Below, in pieces: positions 160 through 9,776 of a DNA stretch of 64,000 bases. Positions within the stretch are counted from its first letter, which is position 1. Each line of letters opens with the position of its first letter. A program made the translations under genes and the position numbers. The DNA is from Pseudomonas putida NBRC 14164 (GTDB lineage Bacteria; Pseudomonadota; Gammaproteobacteria; Pseudomonadales; Pseudomonadaceae). The notes beneath the pieces are model-generated. The model saw nothing but the letters and a program-made list of their open reading frames with translations, was not told the origin of the DNA and searched no databases. The stretch spans positions 5,884,501-5,948,500 of the forward strand of contig NC_021505.1 in the NCBI RefSeq assembly GCF_000412675.1. The letters are read 5' to 3'.

Positions 160-1539
160 GTGACTGAACCGACTCCACTGGACAAGCGCTGGCTCACCGA
201 AGCGGTACGCCTGCGCGAGGAACACGCCGGCCCCCTGGAAGACCAGGAAGCCAACCGTCGCGCCCGCCAATTGGGCGGCGACCTGGCGGCCCGCATCGAA
301 ACCCGTGCACTGTTCCTGGCCGAACGCGATGGCATGAGCACCGCCCTGCGCCACTGGAAGCAAGGCGCGCGCCTGGCGCTGCTGGCCTTGCTGCTGATGG
401 CCGTGCTCAGCGGCGCGGGCTTGGCCCTGGCCGCCCTGGGCGACGGGCAGCGGCCGGTGAACGTGTTCTGGGCCCTGGGCAGCCTGCTCGGGCTGAACCT
501 GCTGATGCTGCTGGGCTGGGCCATCGGTTCTGCCGTAAGCGGCGAGCATGGCGCAGGGCTGGGCCGCTTGTGGCTATGGCTGAGTGAACGCTTTGCCCGC
601 GATGCCAAGGCCGCACACCTGGCACCTGCGCTGCTGGTGCTGCTGCAACGCCAACGCCTGAACCGCTGGCTGCTCGGCCTGCTGGTGCATGGCCTGTGGC
701 TGCTGGCCATGCTCACCGCCCTGGGCATGCTGCTAGCCTTGCTGGCGACCCGGCGCTATGGCTTTGTCTGGGAAACCACGCTGCTTGCCGCCGACCCGTT
801 CATCCACCTGACCCAAGCCCTGGGCGCCCTGCCTTCGCTGCTGGGCTTTGCCGTGCCTGACGAAGCCATGATCCGCGCCAGCGGCGACACCTTGCCGGCC
901 CTGGAGCAAGCCCGACAGGCCTGGGCCAGCTGGTTGCTGGGGGTGGTGCTGGTGTATGGCCTGTTACCACGCCTGGTACTGGCTGCATTGTGCCTGTGGC
1001 GCTGGCGCCAAGGCCGCGAGCGCCTGGCACTGGACTTGAGCCTGCCCGGCTACGCGCAACTGCGTGATGCACTGATGCCGCGCAGCGAACGCATCGGCGT
1101 GCAGGATGCCGCACCCGAGGCCCTGCCACAGTTTGCCGCCGGCCAGCTGGAAAGCGGCAGCAGCGGTGCCCTGCTGGTGGGCCTGGAACTGGACGACCAG
1201 CGCCCCTGGCCGCCCGCCCTGCCGAAAAGCGTGATCGACGCTGGCGTGCTCGACAGCCGCGAATCGCGCAACCGGCTGCTCGAACAACTCAGCCGCTTCC
1301 CCCCGGCACGCCTGGCCATCGCCTGCGACCCCCGGCGCTCGCCCGACCGCGGCAGCCTGGCGTTGCTCGCCGAACTGGCGCGCAATGCCGGCGCAACCCG
1401 TATCTGGCTACTGCAGTCGGCACCCGGCCAGGCTGTTGATGCCCAGCGCCTGGGCGATTGGCACGAAGCCCTTGACCGCCTTGGCCTGCAACACGCCGAC
1501 ACCTCACCACTGACCTGGCTGGAGCATGGCCATGACTGA
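160..1539 (+). CDS. DUF2868 family integral membrane protein
   Basis: This 459-residue protein has about four hydrophobic segments: near residues 71-93, 103-126, 171-196 and 253-276. A soluble C-terminal part of about 170 residues follows. It matches the DUF2868 family, which has no established function. The open frame extends back to GTG 118 and ATG 148, but GTG 160 is preceded by GGAAG at 5-base spacing and gives the start MTEPTPLDKRW, so it is preferred. The 3' end overlaps the next gene by a few bases, which implies translational coupling with the DUF3482 GTPase-like protein. I infer that the two act together at the inner membrane; the process is unknown. Confidence 0.75.
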   Translation: MTEPTPLDKRWLTEAVRLREEHAGPLEDQEANRRARQLGGDLAARIETRALFLAERDGMSTALRHWKQGARLALLALLLMAVLSGAGLALAALGDGQRPVNVFWALGSLLGLNLLMLLGWAIGSAVSGEHGAGLGRLWLWLSERFARDAKAAHLAPALLVLLQRQRLNRWLLGLLVHGLWLLAMLTALGMLLALLATRRYGFVWETTLLAADPFIHLTQALGALPSLLGFAVPDEAMIRASGDTLPALEQARQAWASWLLGVVLVYGLLPRLVLAALCLWRWRQGRERLALDLSLPGYAQLRDALMPRSERIGVQDAAPEALPQFAAGQLESGSSGALLVGLELDDQRPWPPALPKSVIDAGVLDSRESRNRLLEQLSRFPPARLAIACDPRRSPDRGSLALLAELARNAGATRIWLLQSAPGQAVDAQRLGDWHEALDRLGLQHADTSPLTWLEHGHD

Positions 1540-2896
1540 GCCACTGAAACTGGCCGTGGTCGGCCATACCAACGTCGGCAAGACCTCGCTGCTGCGCACG
1601 CTGACCCGCGACGTAGGCTTTGGCGAAGTGTCCCACCGCCCCAGCACCACCCGCCATGTAGAAGGTGCGCGCTTGTCGGTGGACGGCGAACCCTTGCTGG
1701 AGCTGTACGACACCCCGGGCCTGGAGGATGCCATCGCGTTGCTCGACTACCTCGAACGCCTGGAACGCCCGGGCGAGCGCCTGGACGGCCCGGCCCGCCT
1801 GGAGCGCTTTCTGCAGGGCAGCGAAGCGCGCCAGCGTTTCGAGCAGGAGGCCAAGGTGCTGCGCCAGTTGCTGGCCAGCAATGCCGGCCTGTACGTGATC
1901 GACGCGCGCGAGCCGGTGCTGGCCAAGTATCGCGATGAACTGGAAGTGCTGGCCAGCTGCGGCAAGCCGTTGCTGCCGGTGCTCAACTTCGTCGCCAGCC
2001 ACCAGCACCGCGAGCCGCAATGGCGTGAAGCCCTTGCCCGGCTTGGGCTTCACGCGTTGGTGCGGTTCGACAGCGTGGCCCCGCCCGAGGATGGCGAGCG
2101 CCGTTTGTACGAAAGCCTGGCCCTGCTGCTGGAGGACGCCCGCCCGGCCCTGCAGCGGCTGATCGACGACCAGCAGGCACAGCGCCTGGCCCGCCAGCAA
2201 AGTGGCAAGCGGCTGATTGCCGAGTTGCTGCTGGACTGCGCCGCCTGCCGGCGTAGCGTCGAGGCGGAGCCAGCGGCCGAAGCCAAGGCCATAGAGGCGC
2301 TGCGCCGGGACATACGCCAACGTGAACAGCGTTGCGTCGAAGCCTTGCTCAAGCTGTATGCCTTCCGCCGCGAGGATGCCCATGCCAGCGACCTGCCGTT
2401 GCTCGATGGCCGCTGGGGCGATGACCTGTTCAATCCTGAAACCCTGAAGCTGCTGGGTGTGCGCCTGGGCAGCGGCGTGGCGGCCGGCGCTGCAGCCGGG
2501 GCCGGGGTCGATCTGCTGGTCGGCGGGCTTACCCTCGGCGCGGCAGCGCTGGCCGGCGCGATTGCCGGCGGTGCGCTGCAGACGGCGCGTAACTATGGCT
2601 CACGGTTGATGGGCAAGCTCAAGGGCAAACGCGAGCTGACCGTGGACGACACGGTATTGCGCCTGCTGGCGTTGCGTCAGCAGCAGTTGATGGTGGCGCT
2701 GGATAACCGCGGGCATGCGGCGCAAGACAGCATCAGGCTGGGTGAGCTGGATGAGAAGGCCTGGCGCGAGGGCAAGTTGCCAGAGGCACTGGTGAAGGCG
2801 CGGGCGCATCCGCAATGGTCGACGCTCAACCCAGGGGCGAAGCTGAATCAGGCTGAGCGGCAGGAACAGCTGGAGGCACTGGTTTCACAATTTTGA
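1532..2896 (+). CDS. DUF3482 family GTPase-like protein
   Basis: This 454-residue protein has an N-terminal P-loop GTPase domain. The G1 motif is GHTNVGKT at residues 11-18 and the G3 motif is DTPG at 60-63. The expected G4 motif NKxD is replaced by NFVA near residue 152, so guanine specificity cannot be assumed. A glycine/alanine-rich hydrophobic stretch near 310-350 could insert in or touch the membrane. ATG 1532 is preferred over ATG 1526 because GGAG at 1521-1524 is 7 bases from the former and only 1 from the latter. The gene overlaps the DUF2868 gene by 8 bases. The family assignment is by recognition and the role is unknown. Confidence 0.75.
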   Translation: MTEPLKLAVVGHTNVGKTSLLRTLTRDVGFGEVSHRPSTTRHVEGARLSVDGEPLLELYDTPGLEDAIALLDYLERLERPGERLDGPARLERFLQGSEARQRFEQEAKVLRQLLASNAGLYVIDAREPVLAKYRDELEVLASCGKPLLPVLNFVASHQHREPQWREALARLGLHALVRFDSVAPPEDGERRLYESLALLLEDARPALQRLIDDQQAQRLARQQSGKRLIAELLLDCAACRRSVEAEPAAEAKAIEALRRDIRQREQRCVEALLKLYAFRREDAHASDLPLLDGRWGDDLFNPETLKLLGVRLGSGVAAGAAAGAGVDLLVGGLTLGAAALAGAIAGGALQTARNYGSRLMGKLKGKRELTVDDTVLRLLALRQQQLMVALDNRGHAAQDSIRLGELDEKAWREGKLPEALVKARAHPQWSTLNPGAKLNQAERQEQLEALVSQF

Positions 2897-2903
2897 GTCA
2901 GCA

Positions 2904-2990
2904 GGCCTGGCCTCTTCGCAGCACAAGGCTGCTCCTACAGATATCGCGTCCGCCTGTAGGAGCAGCCTTGTGCTGCGAAGAGGCCAGGCC
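2904..2990. repeat. Inverted REP pair, perfect 37-bp arms
   Basis: Bases 2904-2940 and 2954-2990 are exact reverse complements separated by 13 bases. The core is the CGCAGCACAAGGCTGCTCCTACAG class of Pseudomonas REP. It lies between convergent genes and could form a long cruciform or transcript hairpin that ends or protects both mRNAs. Confidence 0.9.
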
Positions 2991-3004
2991 CGACAACCCA
3001 TGTT

Positions 3005-3553
3005 TCAAAGCAATGCCAGTGCCCTCTGCTTCAACCCATCCAGATCAACCACCGGTACCCCCACCTCCTTGGCCCGCTCATCCCACTCCCGCATCCGCAA
3101 GCTCACCTCGAACAGCGGATCCCGCTCGAATGCATCCGCCTCAGCTTCGCTCATTACCCCCCCCTGATACTCCAGGGTCCGCCGGCTCGCCTCGCTCAGG
3201 CGCTGGTAATACCCCGCCTGGCGCAACGTCAGGTAACGCTTGGCCTCCACGTGATACTCCACCAACCGCGACATGCGCTCGCCAAAGCCGCAACGGCGCA
3301 AATACTCGGCGCCGATGCGTTCATGGCTGACCACGCCGTAGCCGCCCATGCTGGCGTCACCGCCACACAGGTGGCCGATGTCGTGGAAGAACGCCGCCAG
3401 CACCACCTCATCGTCGAAGCCTTCGGCCATGGCCAGTTGCGCGGCCTGTGACATGTGTTCGAGCTGGGTGATGGCTTCGCCGATGTAGTCGTCGGTGCCA
3501 TGGAGTGCGTACAGGGCGAAGGTGCTGTCGACTATCTGTGCTGGATCAGGCAT
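3005..3553 (-). CDS. PhnZ-like HD-domain mixed-valence diiron oxygenase
   Basis: This 182-residue single-domain HD protein resembles PhnZ, which cleaves the C-P bond of (R)-1-hydroxy-2-aminoethylphosphonate to glycine and phosphate. Residues corresponding to the PhnZ iron ligands are present: H33, H57-D58, H77, H101 and D158. So are Y23 and E26, which match the substrate-gating tyrosine and glutamate of PhnZ, and K105. Ordinary HD phosphohydrolases lack this Y-xx-E pair. The gene lies downstream of the phosphonate-type ABC transporter on the same strand, separated by a REP pair. No PhnY-type 2OG hydroxylase, its usual partner, is encoded nearby. An HD phosphohydrolase is the alternative but is less likely. 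Confidence 0.75.
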   Translation of the reverse strand: MPDPAQIVDSTFALYALHGTDDYIGEAITQLEHMSQAAQLAMAEGFDDEVVLAAFFHDIGHLCGGDASMGGYGVVSHERIGAEYLRRCGFGERMSRLVEYHVEAKRYLTLRQAGYYQRLSEASRRTLEYQGGVMSEAEADAFERDPLFEVSLRMREWDERAKEVGVPVVDLDGLKQRALALL

Positions 3554-3583
3554 CGGTATCTATTCCTGGCTTGGTAGCGGCGG

Positions 3584-3682
3584 TGGCTTCTTCGCGGGCT
3601 CGCCCGCTCCCACAAGGGGCTGCGCAAATTTCAGGACCTGCGCAGTACCTGTGGGAGCGGGCATGCCCGCGAAGAGGCCGGT
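3584..3682. repeat. Inverted REP pair, class CGCGGGCNNGCCCGC
   Basis: Left arm core is TTCGCGGGCTCGCCCGCTCC near 3590-3610. The right arm is its imperfect reverse complement near 3648-3682. It separates the HD oxygenase gene from the binding-protein gene upstream on the same strand, so it may uncouple the expression of the two. Confidence 0.85.
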
Positions 3683-3687
3683 ACAGG

Positions 3688-4713
3688 TTACTGCTGGGCC
3701 ACCTTCTCCGACTTGCCGTCGTAGCGCTTGCGCCACTCGGCCAGAATCTGGTCACGGTTCTTCGATGCCCACGCAAAGTCGTTCTTGATCAGGCGCTGTT
3801 CATAGTCCGCTGGCAGCTCGGTCTGTGGCTTGGCAATACCCGGCGCGGCCAGCACGGCGAAGTTTTCCTTGTACAGCTCCATCGCCGCCGGGCTGGCCGA
3901 GAAATCAGCCAGGCGCTTGGCCGCATCCGCCTTGGGCGAGCCTTTGATCACAGCAGTCGCCTCGATCTCCCAGCCCAGGCCTTCCTTCGGCAACACGATG
4001 TCCAGCGGTGCGCCCTGGCGCTTCAGTTGCACAGCCGGGTATTCGAACGAGATACCGATCGGGAACTCGCCCGCAGCCGCCAGCTTGCATGGCTTGGAGC
4101 CGGAGTGAACATACTGGCCGATGTTCTGGTGCAGTGCGTCCATGTAGGCCCAGCCTTGCGGCTCACCAAAGGTCTGCAACCAGGCACTCACGTCAAGGAA
4201 GCCGGTACCCGACGAGGCCGGGTTCGGCATGACGATCTTGCCTTTGTATTCCGGCTTGGTCAGGTCCTGCCAGCTCACCGGCTTGCTCAGGCCCTGCTTC
4301 TCGGCCTCGATGGTATTGAAGCAGATGGTTGCGGCCCACACGTCCATGCCCACCCACGCCGGCGGGTTGGCAGCGTCCCGGTAGTTGCCGGAGATCTTGC
4401 CCAGGTCCTTCGGTGCATAGGCTTCCAGCATGCCGTTCTGGTCGAGAATGGCCAGGCTGGACGCTGCCAGGCCCCATACCGCGTCGGCTTGCGGGCGGTC
4501 TTTCTCGGCCAGCAGCTTGGCAGTGATGATGCCGGTGGAATCGCGTACCCACTTGATCTCGATGTCCGGGTTGGCCTTCTCGAAGGCCTGCTTGTAGCTC
4601 TTCAGCTGCTCGGCTTCCAGCGCGGTGTAGACCGTCAGCTGGGTATCCGCGGCCGAAGCCTGCAGGCTGAATACGGCAGAAACGGCAGCGGCAAGTGCAA
4701 GGTGCTTGTACAT
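3688..4713 (-). CDS. Putative 2-aminoethylphosphonate ABC transporter, substrate-binding protein
   Basis: This is a 341-residue periplasmic protein with a cleavable signal peptide (MYKHLALAAAVSAVFSLQASA, then ADTQ). The mature part begins QLTVYTALEAEQLKSYKQAF, typical of the iron/phosphonate-type extracellular solute-binding family. It resembles the PhnS2-type proteins that deliver 2-aminoethylphosphonate to PhnV/PhnT2-like importers. An RBS (AAGGA) lies about 9 bases before the ATG. It follows the permease gene by 18 bases and is the last gene of the transporter operon. The substrate is inferred from family and context; related proteins bind ferric iron or polyamines. A 2-AEP importer named AepXVW has been described in P. 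putida, and this could be that system, but I cannot confirm it. Confidence 0.75.
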   Translation of the reverse strand: MYKHLALAAAVSAVFSLQASAADTQLTVYTALEAEQLKSYKQAFEKANPDIEIKWVRDSTGIITAKLLAEKDRPQADAVWGLAASSLAILDQNGMLEAYAPKDLGKISGNYRDAANPPAWVGMDVWAATICFNTIEAEKQGLSKPVSWQDLTKPEYKGKIVMPNPASSGTGFLDVSAWLQTFGEPQGWAYMDALHQNIGQYVHSGSKPCKLAAAGEFPIGISFEYPAVQLKRQGAPLDIVLPKEGLGWEIEATAVIKGSPKADAAKRLADFSASPAAMELYKENFAVLAAPGIAKPQTELPADYEQRLIKNDFAWASKNRDQILAEWRKRYDGKSEKVAQQ

Positions 4714-6457: not shown

Positions 6458-7516
6458 TCAGGCAAACACCTGCAGGCTCTGCGGCGGCAGCGCCACCCAG
6501 ATGTCCTGCGAACCCAGGCGGGGCATGGCCTCGGGGGCCACCTCGGCCAGCAGGGCATGGCCTGGCAGGGCCTTGAGTTCAAAACTCATGCGGCAGCGGT
6601 TACCGAGAAAGGTGATTTCGCGGACCATGGCCGGGAACAGGTTTTCTTCGTGTACCACCGGGTTGACCGTGATCGCCTCCGGGCGGCAGAACAGCCGGCC
6701 ACTGCTGGCCTGGGCCGAACCCGGCGCCAGGCGCATGTTCATGCCGCCAACCTGGGCATGGCTGTCGCCGCTTCGCTGGAATGGCAGCCAGTTACCCTGG
6801 CCGACGAACTCGGCAACGAACAGCGTGGCCGGTTGGTCGTAGATTTCCTGCGGGGTGGCGTACTGCTCGACCTGGCCGTTGTTCATCACGGCAATGCGGT
6901 CGGCCATCAGCATGGCTTCGTCCTGGTTGTGGGTCACCATCAGGGTGGTGATGCCCAGCTGGCGTTGCAGCTGGCGCAGCTCGGTGCACAGGTGCTCGCG
7001 GACCCGGGCGTCCAGCGCCGACATCGGCTCGTCGAGCAGTAGCAGGGATGGCGACGGCGCCAGCGCACGGGCCAGGGCCACACGTTGCTGCTGGCCACCG
7101 GAAAGCTGGCCTGGGTATTTCTTCTCGCTGCCAGAAAGGCCCACCAGTTCGAGCATTTCAGCCACCCGCTGGCGGGCCTGCTCGCGGCCACTGCCGGTCA
7201 GGCCGTAGGCGATGTTGGCTTCGACGGTAAGGTTGGGGAACAGCGCGTAGGACTGAAACAGGATGCCGTAGTCACGGGCCTGGGGCGGCAGCTCGGAGAT
7301 ATCGCGCTCGCCGATGTACAGCGTGCCGCGGTCCTGGCGCTCCAGGCCGGCGATGCAGCGCAGCAGCGTGGTCTTGCCACAGCCGGACGGGCCGAGCAGG
7401 CACACCAGTTCGCCGGCGGCGATGTCCAGCGAGACATCGTTGAGTGCCGTGAAGGCACCGAAGCGCTTGTGGATGTTGCGCACTTTCATCTGTGCGCCGG
7501 GGGTGGTGTGGTTCAT
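6458..7516 (-). CDS. Putative 2-aminoethylphosphonate ABC transporter ATP-binding protein
   Basis: This 352-residue ATPase energises the importer. The Walker A motif GPSGCGKT is at residues 42-49, the signature LSGGQ at 138-142 and the Walker B LLLLDEP near 158-164. A C-terminal TOBE-type regulatory domain occupies about 270-350. It is the first gene of the leftward operon. GAGG lies about 7 bases before the ATG. The sequence fits the PhnT2-like group next to PotA/FbpC. The promoter should lie in 7517-7631, the short stretch between this start and the IS110-interrupted REP. Confidence 0.8.
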   Translation of the reverse strand: MNHTTPGAQMKVRNIHKRFGAFTALNDVSLDIAAGELVCLLGPSGCGKTTLLRCIAGLERQDRGTLYIGERDISELPPQARDYGILFQSYALFPNLTVEANIAYGLTGSGREQARQRVAEMLELVGLSGSEKKYPGQLSGGQQQRVALARALAPSPSLLLLDEPMSALDARVREHLCTELRQLQRQLGITTLMVTHNQDEAMLMADRIAVMNNGQVEQYATPQEIYDQPATLFVAEFVGQGNWLPFQRSGDSHAQVGGMNMRLAPGSAQASSGRLFCRPEAITVNPVVHEENLFPAMVREITFLGNRCRMSFELKALPGHALLAEVAPEAMPRLGSQDIWVALPPQSLQVFA

Positions 7517-7631
7517 GGCAGGGCCTCATCGAAGAGATGGGGCCATGCTAGGCAGGCTGTGCGAAGGTTCTGTGGCTTTGAGGCAAAAGCCGGTGATAGT
7601 GGTATAGGCAGATTTTGTATTGGCCTGTCGG

Positions 7632-7655
7632 GGCCTCTTCGCGGGCTTGCCCGCT
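7632..7655. repeat. Left fragment of a REP element split by an insertion sequence
   Basis: Bases 7632-7655 are the beginning of a class CGCGGGCNNGCCCGC REP. The palindrome continues at 8826 after the IS: joining ...GCCCGCT to CCCACAGG restores a normal REP. The preceding stretch 7517-7631 has no gene and probably carries the transporter promoter. Confidence 0.85.
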
Positions 7656-7859
7656 TGTATGGTTAGACTTGAAGGGGTGGTGGGACTAAATGCCCGATTC
7701 TGACTGTTCACAGCAGTACAGACCGTGGGAGACATCGCCCCACCCCTTCCACCAAAGCGCCGATAAAGAATGCATCGTTTGCAAACGACGATAGAAGCAA
7801 GCCAGCGCCTCTTGGTGAAACCCCTTCAAGCCAAAAAACCATAACGTGAGGAGGCTCCC
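7656..7859 (+). ncRNA. Candidate bridge RNA in the IS110 left end
   Basis: In IS110-group elements the non-coding end upstream of the recombinase encodes a structured bridge RNA that pairs with donor and target DNA. This 204-base left end has no ORF but is rich in dyads. TATGGTT...CTTGAAGGGG (7658-7677) mirrors CCCCTTCAAG...AACCATA (7821-7843). GAAGGGGTG near 7671 can pair with CACCCCTTC near 7740. CGTTTGCAAACG near 7772 is a perfect dyad. The RNA ends and loops cannot be fixed by eye. Confidence 0.5.
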
Positions 7860-8813
7860 GTGGCAATGCAGGTTGGCAAATTGATCGTGGGTGCGGATGT
7901 CGCGAAAGCTGAGTTAGTGATTCATCACGATGATCGCGATGAGATCATCAAGGTGAAAAATACCAAACCGGAAATCAAGAAATGGCTGAAGCAACAGCCT
8001 CTCAACACGGCAATTGCTGTTGAGGCGACCAATGTTTACCACCTGGACTTGGTTGAGCTGGCCCATAGCCTGGGTTTCGAGGTCTATGTCATTGATGGAT
8101 TCCAACTGAGTAACTACCGCAAAAGCGTGGGTGTACGGGTAAAAACGGACCCCACTGATGCTCGGTTGCTGTCCCGATTTTTGAGAAACGAGGGGGAAGA
8201 CCTCCGCCCTTGGACTCCCCCTCCCGCCGTCTACGGCAAGCTTCAGAGCCTTCTGCGACGCCGAGCGGCCTTGGTGACTGCCCGCACGGCGATGACCCAG
8301 AGCTGGGCTAATGAACCCCTGTTGAAAGCCGCCTTCACAACCTTTGTAAAATCGATAGACCGGCTGGATTTGTTGATCCAAAAGAAAATTAAAGAGGTGC
8401 TGCGCGAAGCAGGGCTGCACGAGCAAGTTGCTCGCTGCCAGGCGGTAGAGGGTATTGGTTTTCTCACTGCGACTGCCTTGGTAATGGCCTTTATGCGGGG
8501 CGAGTTCAAGAGCAGTGATTCGTACATTGCATTCCTGGGAATGGATCTACGAGTGATTGATTCTGGGCAGAAGAATGGACGTCGTCGCCTGACCAAGCGA
8601 GGCTGCTCAGAAATCCGTCGCCTGCTGCATAACGCGGCGATGTCAGCCAGCCGGACGGCCACTTGGAAAGGGATCTACGAACAACATCGCAATGCGGGTA
8701 AAGCAACAACCCAGGCGTTGGTAATCCTGGCCAGGAAGCTTGCACGAGTGGCATTCGCCCTGATGAAGAATCAGGACGAATATGTCACCAAGGGTGGGAA
8801 AGCGCCTTGCTGA
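7860..8813 (+). CDS. IS110-family DEDD transposase/recombinase
   Basis: This 317-residue protein has the two IS110 domains. The N-terminal RuvC-like DEDD domain has D13, E55, D97 and D100, with the spacing seen in characterised members. The C-terminal Tnp domain (about 190-300) carries VEGIGFLTATALV and a candidate catalytic serine, S235, in the DSG context. It moves the element by RNA-guided recombination rather than by DDE chemistry. GTG 7860 is chosen because AGGAGG lies at 7849-7854, 5 bases upstream; ATG 7866 is an alternative. The gene appears intact. It is transcribed opposite to the flanking phosphonate genes. Confidence 0.92.
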   Translation: MAMQVGKLIVGADVAKAELVIHHDDRDEIIKVKNTKPEIKKWLKQQPLNTAIAVEATNVYHLDLVELAHSLGFEVYVIDGFQLSNYRKSVGVRVKTDPTDARLLSRFLRNEGEDLRPWTPPPAVYGKLQSLLRRRAALVTARTAMTQSWANEPLLKAAFTTFVKSIDRLDLLIQKKIKEVLREAGLHEQVARCQAVEGIGFLTATALVMAFMRGEFKSSDSYIAFLGMDLRVIDSGQKNGRRRLTKRGCSEIRRLLHNAAMSASRTATWKGIYEQHRNAGKATTQALVILARKLARVAFALMKNQDEYVTKGGKAPC

Positions 8814-8825
8814 AAACCATAGAAT

Positions 8826-8897
8826 CTCCCACAGGATATCTACAAAATTCAGACCCTACGCAGTACCTGTGGGAGCGGGCAAGCCCGCGAAGAAGCC
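8826..8897. repeat. Right fragment of the split REP plus its inverted partner REP
   Basis: CTCCCACAGG at 8826-8835 is the end of the REP interrupted by the IS. An intact inverted REP, with CCTGTGGGAGCGGGCAAGCC within 8867-8886, follows and ends near 8897. The original locus was therefore a normal REP pair between the LysR gene and the transporter operon. Confidence 0.85.
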
Positions 8898-8906
8898 AAC
8901 ACAGGT

Positions 8907-9776
8907 CTAGAAATGCGAACCGGCCACTTCTTGCGCTACACCCATGAACGCGGCCGGCAACCTGGCCTGGCGCCGTTCCTTCAGGCAATACAGGTACTCA
9001 TGCATCACCGGCGCATTCTCCAGCACGAGCACCCGCAGTTCGGGGTTGTGCGGCACCTCATGGCGGGCAATCACGCTGATGCCGATGTTGCGCAGCACCG
9101 CCTCGCGGATCGACTCGCGGCTGCCGATTTCCAGCAAGGCCCCGGCCGTCACCCCGGCCTCCTGCATCATCTGCTCGGTCAGCTTGCGCGTGGTCGAGCC
9201 CTTCTCCCGCATCAACAGGCAATGCCCGGCCACCACATCGATGGACACCGTCTGGCGGTGGGCCAATGGGTGGTTGCGGTGCACCGCCACCACCAGCGGA
9301 TCGGTGCCCAGCACCCGTCGCACCAGCCGGGCGTCCTCCAGCAGCTGCGACGAAGCGGCGATATCCACCCGGTAGTCTTCGAGCATTTCCAGCACCTGCT
9401 GCGAGTTGCCGATCTCCACCGCTACATCCACCTGCGGCAAGCGCTCGCGGTAGATCTTCACCAGGTCGAGAATGTAGTAAGGCGCTGTGGCGGCGATGCG
9501 CAAACTGCCTTGGGCCTGGCCGCTGTTGCGCAGCTCGAACTCGATGTCGGCCTCCTGTTGCAACAGCGCCTTGACCATCGGCAGCAGTCGCACGCCCTCT
9601 TCGCTCAACACCAGGCGCCGCCCGCCACGGTAGAACAGCTCGACCGTGTAGTGGCTTTCCAGGTTGCGGATCTGCGTGGTCACCGTGGGCTGGCTGAGCC
9701 CGAGCTTCTTTGCCGCCAGGGTGATGCTGCCCAGGCGGGCCACCATGTAAAAGGCTTTAAGCTCCGAACTCAGCAT
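8907..9776 (-). CDS. LysR-family regulator, probably of phosphonate uptake
   Basis: This 289-residue LysR regulator has an N-terminal winged helix-turn-helix (about residues 17-38, with SITLAAKKLGLSQPTVTTQI) and a C-terminal type-2 periplasmic-binding-like effector domain. It resembles LysR proteins found with 2-aminoethylphosphonate catabolism genes. It starts 9 bases after the cadA stop codon with AGAGGAC as RBS, so some of its transcription may come from the cadA promoter. The transporter operon lies downstream on the same strand, now separated from it by the IS110 element. The target and effector are inferred from context. Confidence 0.7.
   Translation of the reverse strand: MLSSELKAFYMVARLGSITLAAKKLGLSQPTVTTQIRNLESHYTVELFYRGGRRLVLSEEGVRLLPMVKALLQQEADIEFELRNSGQAQGSLRIAATAPYYILDLVKIYRERLPQVDVAVEIGNSQQVLEMLEDYRVDIAASSQLLEDARLVRRVLGTDPLVVAVHRNHPLAHRQTVSIDVVAGHCLLMREKGSTTRKLTEQMMQEAGVTAGALLEIGSRESIREAVLRNIGISVIARHEVPHNPELRVLVLENAPVMHEYLYCLKERRQARLPAAFMGVAQEVAGSHF

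What the first reader, a model, noticed from the sequence alone, without database searches (positions are those of the whole stretch)
7654..8827. IS110-family element has inserted precisely into a REP palindrome
Removing 7656-8827 rejoins ...CGGGCTTGCCCGCT to CCCACAGG and restores a REP identical in class to others in the window. A CT dinucleotide is present at both junctions, as expected for the core of an RNA-guided IS110 recombinase. Elements of this kind are known to target REP in P. putida, so the bridge RNA target loop should carry REP sequence. This gives a natural example of programmable targeting of a repeat present hundreds of times per genome.
Basis: partly seen in the sequence, partly recalled or inferred. 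Interest (0 to 1): 0.7.

Follow-up and report, generated by a model that had tools for sequence, protein, structure and literature searches.

The report
RNA-guided IS110 element inside REP palindrome
A small jumping element has landed at one exact spot inside a repeat that occurs hundreds of times in this Pseudomonas genome, and short guide stretches in its own predicted RNA spell that repeat; related elements in other Pseudomonas often carry guides rewritten to fit their own host's version of the repeat.

Summary
A 1170-bp IS110 element (7656-8825, core CT) sits inside a REP; closing the gap restores a REP identical over 28 nt to its inverted partner. Nine of nine copies in the genome lie at the same base and orientation of a REP, beside 482 intact sites.

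In 122 copies from 36 genomes the left guide matches at 98-114 of 122 copies per position from -7 to -1, and 16 of 122 at -8. Guides vary with the host's REP subtype. In seven hosts with two counted subtypes, 37 of 38 insertions lie in the guide-matching one, 20.7 expected. The fit is not perfect: in 12 of 36 genomes no copy matches at all five positions -5 to -1.

REP targeting by ISPpu9 and ISPpu10 at this position was published in 2006, RNA guidance of IS110 in 2024. So: a new member of a known kind, and a good natural test of it. No experiment was run.

The parts
7636..7655 (+). left half of the broken REP (TCTTCGCGGGCTTGCCCGCT), ending in the CT core 7654-7655
7656..8825 (+). IS110 element, 1170 bp, with a CT core at each junction
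   Evidence: same junctions in nine of nine copies
7656..7859 (+). left end, 204 nt upstream of tnp, holds the predicted bridge RNA
   Evidence: fold z -4.65 for 7662-7845; consensus fold of 26 left ends
7668..7676 (+). outer stem, pairs with 7822-7830
   Evidence: 7 pairs invariant in 26 of 26 sequences
7690..7696 (+). left target guide ATGCCCG, same letters as the top strand left of the core
   Evidence: 98-114 of 122 copies match at each of positions -7 to -1
7725..7731 (+). right target guide GTGGGAG, reverse complement of CTCCCAC (core plus 5)
   Evidence: 115-122 of 122 copies match at each of 7 positions
7699..7722 (+). inner hairpin that closes the target loop (TCTGACT...AGTACAGA)
   Evidence: 98.9% of cells paired, two pairs changed on both sides
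7757..7808 (+). predicted donor loop with GCGC stem; donor guide candidates AGAAT (7767-7771) and ATAgaagCAAG (7791-7801)
   Evidence: stem invariant in 26 of 26; guide assignment by eye and untested
7860..8813 (+). tnp, IS110 recombinase, 317 aa, GTG start
8814..8825 (+). right end, ...ACCATAGAAT next to the core
   Evidence: ATAGAATCT found in 122 of 122 copies analysed, none dropped for lacking it
8826..8835 (+). CT core plus right half of the broken REP (CCCACAGG)
8866..8892 (-). intact partner REP of the same REP pair
   Evidence: 0 mismatches to the REP pattern

Best explanation
This is an IS110-group insertion sequence whose recombinase is led to REP palindromes by a bridge RNA encoded in its left end. 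One side of the target loop reads as the left REP arm and the other pairs with the right arm plus the CT core, so the element enters at one base and in one orientation. Shown by sequence: the ends, the fixed position and orientation, the guide match, covariation across hosts and subtype choice within hosts. Inferred from the IS621 model: transcription of the RNA, a circular intermediate, strand exchange at CT and donor pairing. Guides in different host species often follow the local REP spelling.
For: Nine of nine copies at the same REP position and orientation. Left-end fold z -4.65, 0 of 200 shuffles as stable; 99.2% of cells paired over 26 left ends, structure derived from the same alignment. 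Left guide matches 98-114 of 122 at -7 to -1 and 16 of 122 at -8; right guide 115-122 of 122 over seven positions, then 13 of 122. Shuffling left guides among genomes, on 100 copies: observed 5.97 of 7, mean 4.94, 0 of 10000 as high. Subtype choice in seven hosts: 37 of 38, expected 20.7, P 2e-9 if choices are independent. G107 is the one host with guide GTAGGAG, and 7 of 7 of its copies are in CCTAC REPs. At least 15 guide changes on the transposase tree.
Against: The first core base matches the left guide in 33 of 122 copies, the second in 96 of 122. At -7 to -1 the left guide is exact in 59 of 122 copies, one mismatch in 47, two or more in 16; at -5 to -1 it is exact in all copies of 19 of 36 genomes, some copies of 5 and no copy of 12. 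In three of the 12 hosts counted (G226, G152, G257) the guide differs from the common REP; U:G pairing could cover G226. In G093 the right guide reads CTCTCAC but 6 of 6 targets are CTCCCAC. Branch-independent pairs lean the right way, but no single position reaches 0.05. Only 3 of 23 RNA pairs change on both sides. Rfam gives no match.
Confidence: 0.93

Rival explanations
1. The recombinase protein itself reads the REP (shape or sequence), and the REP-like letters in the left end are an old REP fragment with no guiding role.
For: Most REPs met here share a palindrome and CTCCCAC; protein recognition was the published suggestion in 2006 (PMC1525189, passages). Mismatched guides in 12 of 36 genomes.
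Against: The match is split over both strands in one internal loop with sharp limits, guide type changes at least 15 times on the transposase tree, and the guide predicts subtype choice in seven hosts.
Confidence: 0.04
2. Insertions are spread more widely and only those in REPs survive because REPs lie between genes.
For: REPs are mostly intergenic, so insertion there is likely cheap (recalled and inferred).
Against: Nine of nine at one base and one orientation, and neglect of a common second REP subtype, are not explained by survival.
Confidence: 0.02
3. The element is simply ISPpu10 or ISPpu9, already catalogued (a question of name, compatible with the best explanation).
For: Both insert between bases 9 and 10 of the REP with a 2-bp repeat (PMC1525189 passages), for ISPpu9 AG on the other strand (PMC8450116 sections). 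That is the position found here.
Against: Five of seven ISPpu9 copies carry a downstream RNA gene; here the right end is 12 nt and leaves no room for one.
Confidence: 0.3

Closest known systems
ISPpu9 and ISPpu10 (IS110 family, P. putida KT2440)
   Same: Same family, same REP class and position, 2-bp core repeat; 7 of 7 copies of each in REPs (PMC1525189, passages). A predicted bridge RNA for ISPpu10 is in an extended-data figure of PMC11208160 (legend seen).
   Different: Sequence identity not measured; here 9 copies and a right end of 12 nt, without room for a downstream RNA gene.
IS621 (E. coli)
   Same: Bridge-RNA layout: left guide, right guide, donor loop, CT core, REP target; homologous recombinase (E 2.8e-22).
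   Different: The REP sequence differs; right guide of 7 nt here, against 4 described for IS621 with a possible extension to 7 (PMC11208160 passages).
Relatives in other Pseudomonas genomes
   Same: 122 copies in 36 genomes (the window's included) with the same ends and RNA layout.
   Different: Guides differ with the host REP subtype; proteins 52-100% identical to the query.

Membership tests
[quoted passage not shown]
   PF01548 73.3 bits (cut-off 29), PF02371 60.1 (21.3); NF033542 171.2 (140)
IS110 family | D, E, D, D and Ser residues of the recombinase | tested here: met
   letters aligned with IS621; which of them are catalytic is partly recalled
IS110 group (against IS1111) | long non-coding region upstream of tnp; left guide pairs bottom strand and precedes the right guide | tested here: met
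   204 nt upstream against 12 nt downstream; guide order
IS110 group (against IS1111) | no subterminal inverted repeats of 11-13 bp | tested here: inconclusive
   a 10-nt inverted repeat, 90% complementary, lies at the ends; shorter than the IS1111 definition
Bridge-RNA-guided recombinase | guides that match target on both strands and covary with it | tested here: met
   exceptions
Bridge-RNA-guided recombinase | donor loop guides that match RE-core-LE | tested here: inconclusive
   partial match by eye; donor nearly invariant in the 34 left ends listed, so covariation says little
Bridge-RNA-guided recombinase | RNA transcribed, circular intermediate, RNA-dependent insertion | not testable with these tools
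   needs experiment; the candidate promoter across the circle junction is weak (7 of 12 consensus letters, by eye)
ISPpu10 / ISPpu9 as the same IS | over 95% nucleotide identity with the reference (recalled practice) | not tested
   reference not held; ISPpu10 paper not in the library
Pseudomonas REP | short palindrome, hundreds of copies, often in inverted pairs | tested here: met
   482 exact 19-mer sites; 13 in the window; partner REP 28 of 28 nt

The most novel reading that the evidence does not exclude
Across the genus, an RNA-guided transposon lineage follows a moving genomic repeat: its guide is rewritten, repeatedly and independently of its protein, to the REP spelling of each host, so that a high-copy selfish repeat acts as a safe harbour and guide mismatch marks recent arrivals (G226, G152, G257). 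Single guide letters decide between two REP subtypes that coexist in one genome.
Probability: 0.65. Interest if true: 0.6.

Novelty: new member of a known kind. Interest (0 to 1): 0.45.

Why it matters
It is a natural, replicated test of RNA-guided target choice by IS110 elements. Hosts that carry two REP subtypes at similar numbers serve as built-in controls, and the guide letters predict the choice. It also links two mobile systems, REPs and IS110, and gives a set of natural guide and target pairs, tolerated mismatches included, for those who study or engineer bridge recombinases.

Tried and rejected
Rfam search of 7000-9500: no match at E up to 1. Search of plasmids for a named close relative: 810 records, all under 60% identity, so no IS name could be assigned. 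The scan of genome contigs gave 24 loci, 23 of them cut at a contig end, of little use for the left end. Promoter scan of 7600-8900: one minus-strand site, no plus-strand site in the inserted form. Branch-independent pair tests were too small for significance at any single position (part of the output was cut, position -3 was repeated). A first alignment mixed both orientations of the nine copies and was redone. A first regex misplaced some guides; it was corrected.

Rows dropped: 7 of the 43 matching genomes (G005, G009, G109, G160, G212, G249, G295) were not analysed; six had partial matches, G009 a nearly full-length one that was not fetched. Truncated copies in G052, G065, G137 and G138, and one nearly full-length copy with a stop in G138, were not fetched. 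One copy of a tandem pair in G079 and three repeat fetches were left out. The 12 hosts for REP counts were chosen from 36 to cover guide types; the seven in the choice test are those with two or more common counted subtypes, the guide's own among them. Outside that test: G226, G152 and G257 (0 of 3, 0 of 4 and 0 of 3 in the guide subtype) and G083 and G093 (1 of 1 and 6 of 6 by the left guide). One G000 copy (ACCCG) was left out of it because that subtype was not counted. Counts for G018 and G107 are of RTTCG, not of one letter.

Full report
What is there. The window holds an IS110-family element at 7656-8825 with a GTG-started recombinase gene at 7860-8813. The protein matches PF01548 and PF02371 and NCBIfam NF033542 above its cut-off; its closest solved relative is IS621 (E 2.8e-22). 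A CT dinucleotide stands at both junctions. Joining 7655 to 8828 restores a REP that is identical over 28 nt to the reverse complement of the partner REP at 8866-8892. The REP pattern occurs 13 times in the window with up to 3 mismatches and not at all in 100 shuffles.

Copies in the genome. DNA search gives nine full copies. All nine lie at the same base of a REP and in the same orientation, between CCCGCT and CCCAC; eight are 1170 bp, one 1161 bp. The copy in the window differs from the seven other full-length copies at 14 to 16 positions. The genome has 482 intact sites of CGGGCNNGCCCGCTCCCAC.

Empty sites. No second strain of the species is held. Of 27 loci searched, 14 from other species hold both flanking genes. 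None of these gaps can hold the element. Nine of 14 hold an inverted REP pair and five do not. This agrees with a REP older than the insertion, but the sequences are too distant to show the exact empty site.

The RNA. The left end (204 nt) folds well (7662-7845: -60.6 kcal/mol, shuffles -42.3, z -4.65). A consensus of 26 left ends gives an outer stem, a target loop closed by an inner hairpin, and a second stem-loop. With that structure 99.2% of cells pair, against 40-53% when the partners are slid by 1 to 3 columns; the structure was derived from the same alignment, and only 3 of 23 pairs change on both sides. In the target loop, ATGCCCG (7690-7696) reads as the target left of the core, and GTGGGAG (7725-7731) is the reverse complement of CTCCCAC. 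Convention and terms (left and right target guide) follow PMC11208160 (passages seen). In the nine copies of this genome the target letter at -6 varies (T, C or A) against guide T, and one copy has A at -5. The donor loop has candidates for both donor guides, but they match only in part and the donor hardly varies, so they remain untested.

Covariation with the host's REP. A search of 298 genomes of the genus found relatives in 43, the window's own included. I read 122 copies with both ends from 36 of these genomes (the seven left out are named under Tried and rejected). The left guide equals the target at 102, 98, 103, 111, 110, 113 and 114 of 122 copies for positions -7 to -1, and at 16 of 122 at -8. 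The core C matches in 33 and the core T in 96. The right guide matches the core and +1 to +5 in 115 to 122 of 122, and +6 in 13. On the first 100 copies, exchanging left guides between genomes never reached the observed match in 10000 shuffles. That shuffle ignores relatedness. On a tree of 38 transposases guide type changes at least 15 times. Pairs on separate branches lean the expected way (for example 3.9 against 0.3 at -6 and 3.0 against 0.0 at -3), but no position alone reaches 0.05.

How good the fit is. Over -7 to -1 the left guide is exact in 59 of 122 copies, has one mismatch in 47 and two or more in 16. Over -5 to -1 it is exact in 87 of 122 copies: in all copies of 19 genomes, some copies of 5 and no copy of 12.

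Choice within a host. I counted REP subtypes in 12 hosts chosen for guide variety. In seven of them at least two counted subtypes are common, the guide's own among them. There, 37 of 38 insertions lie in the subtype that the guide spells; 20.7 are expected from subtype numbers (P 2e-9 if choices are independent). Examples: the window's genome has 525 GCCCG and 369 GCCAG sites and guide GCCCG: 8 of 8 classed copies in GCCCG, the ninth in ACCCG. Host G308 has 423 and 343, guide GCCAG: 5 of 6 in GCCAG. Host G018 has 140 sites with CCCAC and 135 with CCTAC, and a right guide for CCCAC: 6 of 6. Host G107 has a right guide for CCTAC: 7 of 7 in CCTAC. Outside this test, host G093, with a different REP (GCCGCC, 114 sites), has left guide GCCGCC: 6 of 6, although its right guide reads CTCTCAC and the targets are CTCCCAC.

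Results that do not fit. G226 has guide GTTCG, almost no such sites, and three copies in GCTCG or GCCCG; U:G pairs could bridge the difference. G152 has guide GCCCG, 27 such sites and 260 GCCCC sites; three of four copies are in GCCCC, one in GCTCG. G257 has guide ACCCG and three of three copies in GCCCG (315 sites; ACCCG was not counted). Two or more mismatches at -7 to -1 are also found in G079 (1 of 1), G104 (1 of 1), G141 (4 of 4), G199 (1 of 1), G227 (2 of 4) and one of nine copies in the window's genome. These may be recent arrivals or show tolerance; this is inference.

How it works. By the IS621 model (PMC11208160; its structural companion PMC11208158 seen in search listings only) the recombinase with the RNA excises the element as a circle, pairs the target loop with a REP and recombines at CT. 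Here only the outcome and the guide match are shown; transcription, circle and chemistry are inferred.

What is known. ISPpu9 and ISPpu10 were found in 7 of 7 cases each between bases 9 and 10 of P. putida REPs with a 2-bp repeat (PMC1525189, passages); that is the position here. Two small RNAs of ISPpu9 are described in PMC8450116 (abstract and three sections read). RNA guidance and natural re-direction of this family are in PMC11208160 and PMC11187229 (passages). Six searches of the open library listed no paper whose title or abstract start describes guides of REP-targeting IS110 elements following host REP subtypes; subscription journals and preprints are not covered, and the broad covariation analysis in PMC11208160 may contain such pairs. 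Whether this element is ISPpu10 itself could not be tested.

Verdict. Observation confirmed, interpretation supported, kind known. The added value is a natural, replicated test of guide-directed choice.

Noticed in passing
window 7838-7866, minus strand: Promoter-like site (TTGCCA-17-TATGGT, 9 of 12; mean 0.6 sites in shuffles of the region) that would drive an RNA antisense to the predicted bridge RNA, in the place of Asr9 of ISPpu9. The published 5'-UTR of ISPpu9 tnp may itself contain a bridge RNA (inference).
   Followed up: partly
L087 (G104): A relative 88% identical in protein has a left end of only 125 nt without the donor loop, and a guide that fits its target poorly; the only match at E up to 1e-40 in its genome, perhaps a dead copy.
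   Followed up: no
L203 (G079) 1207-3721: Two copies in tandem with REP sequence between them, spaced 1352 bp, which looks like a segmental duplication.
   Followed up: partly
L099 (G199): Insertion flanked by a repeat of about 18 bp (CTCCCACATTTGGTAGCT) instead of a clean CT; guide does not fit the left flank.
   Followed up: no
L179 and L180 (G227): Two copies in REPs that seem to have one extra base left of the core, so the guide register is slipped.
   Followed up: no
L094, L128-L130 (G093): About 200 bp of extra sequence between the end of the matched protein and the right end, with a REP-like palindrome inside.
   Followed up: no
window 7655-7664 and 8815-8824, and relatives: The ends form a short inverted repeat: TATGGT/ACCATA in 21 and TATGTT/AACATA in 10 of 34 left ends, TATGCT/ACCATA in 3, so 31 of 34 keep the complementarity.
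   Followed up: partly
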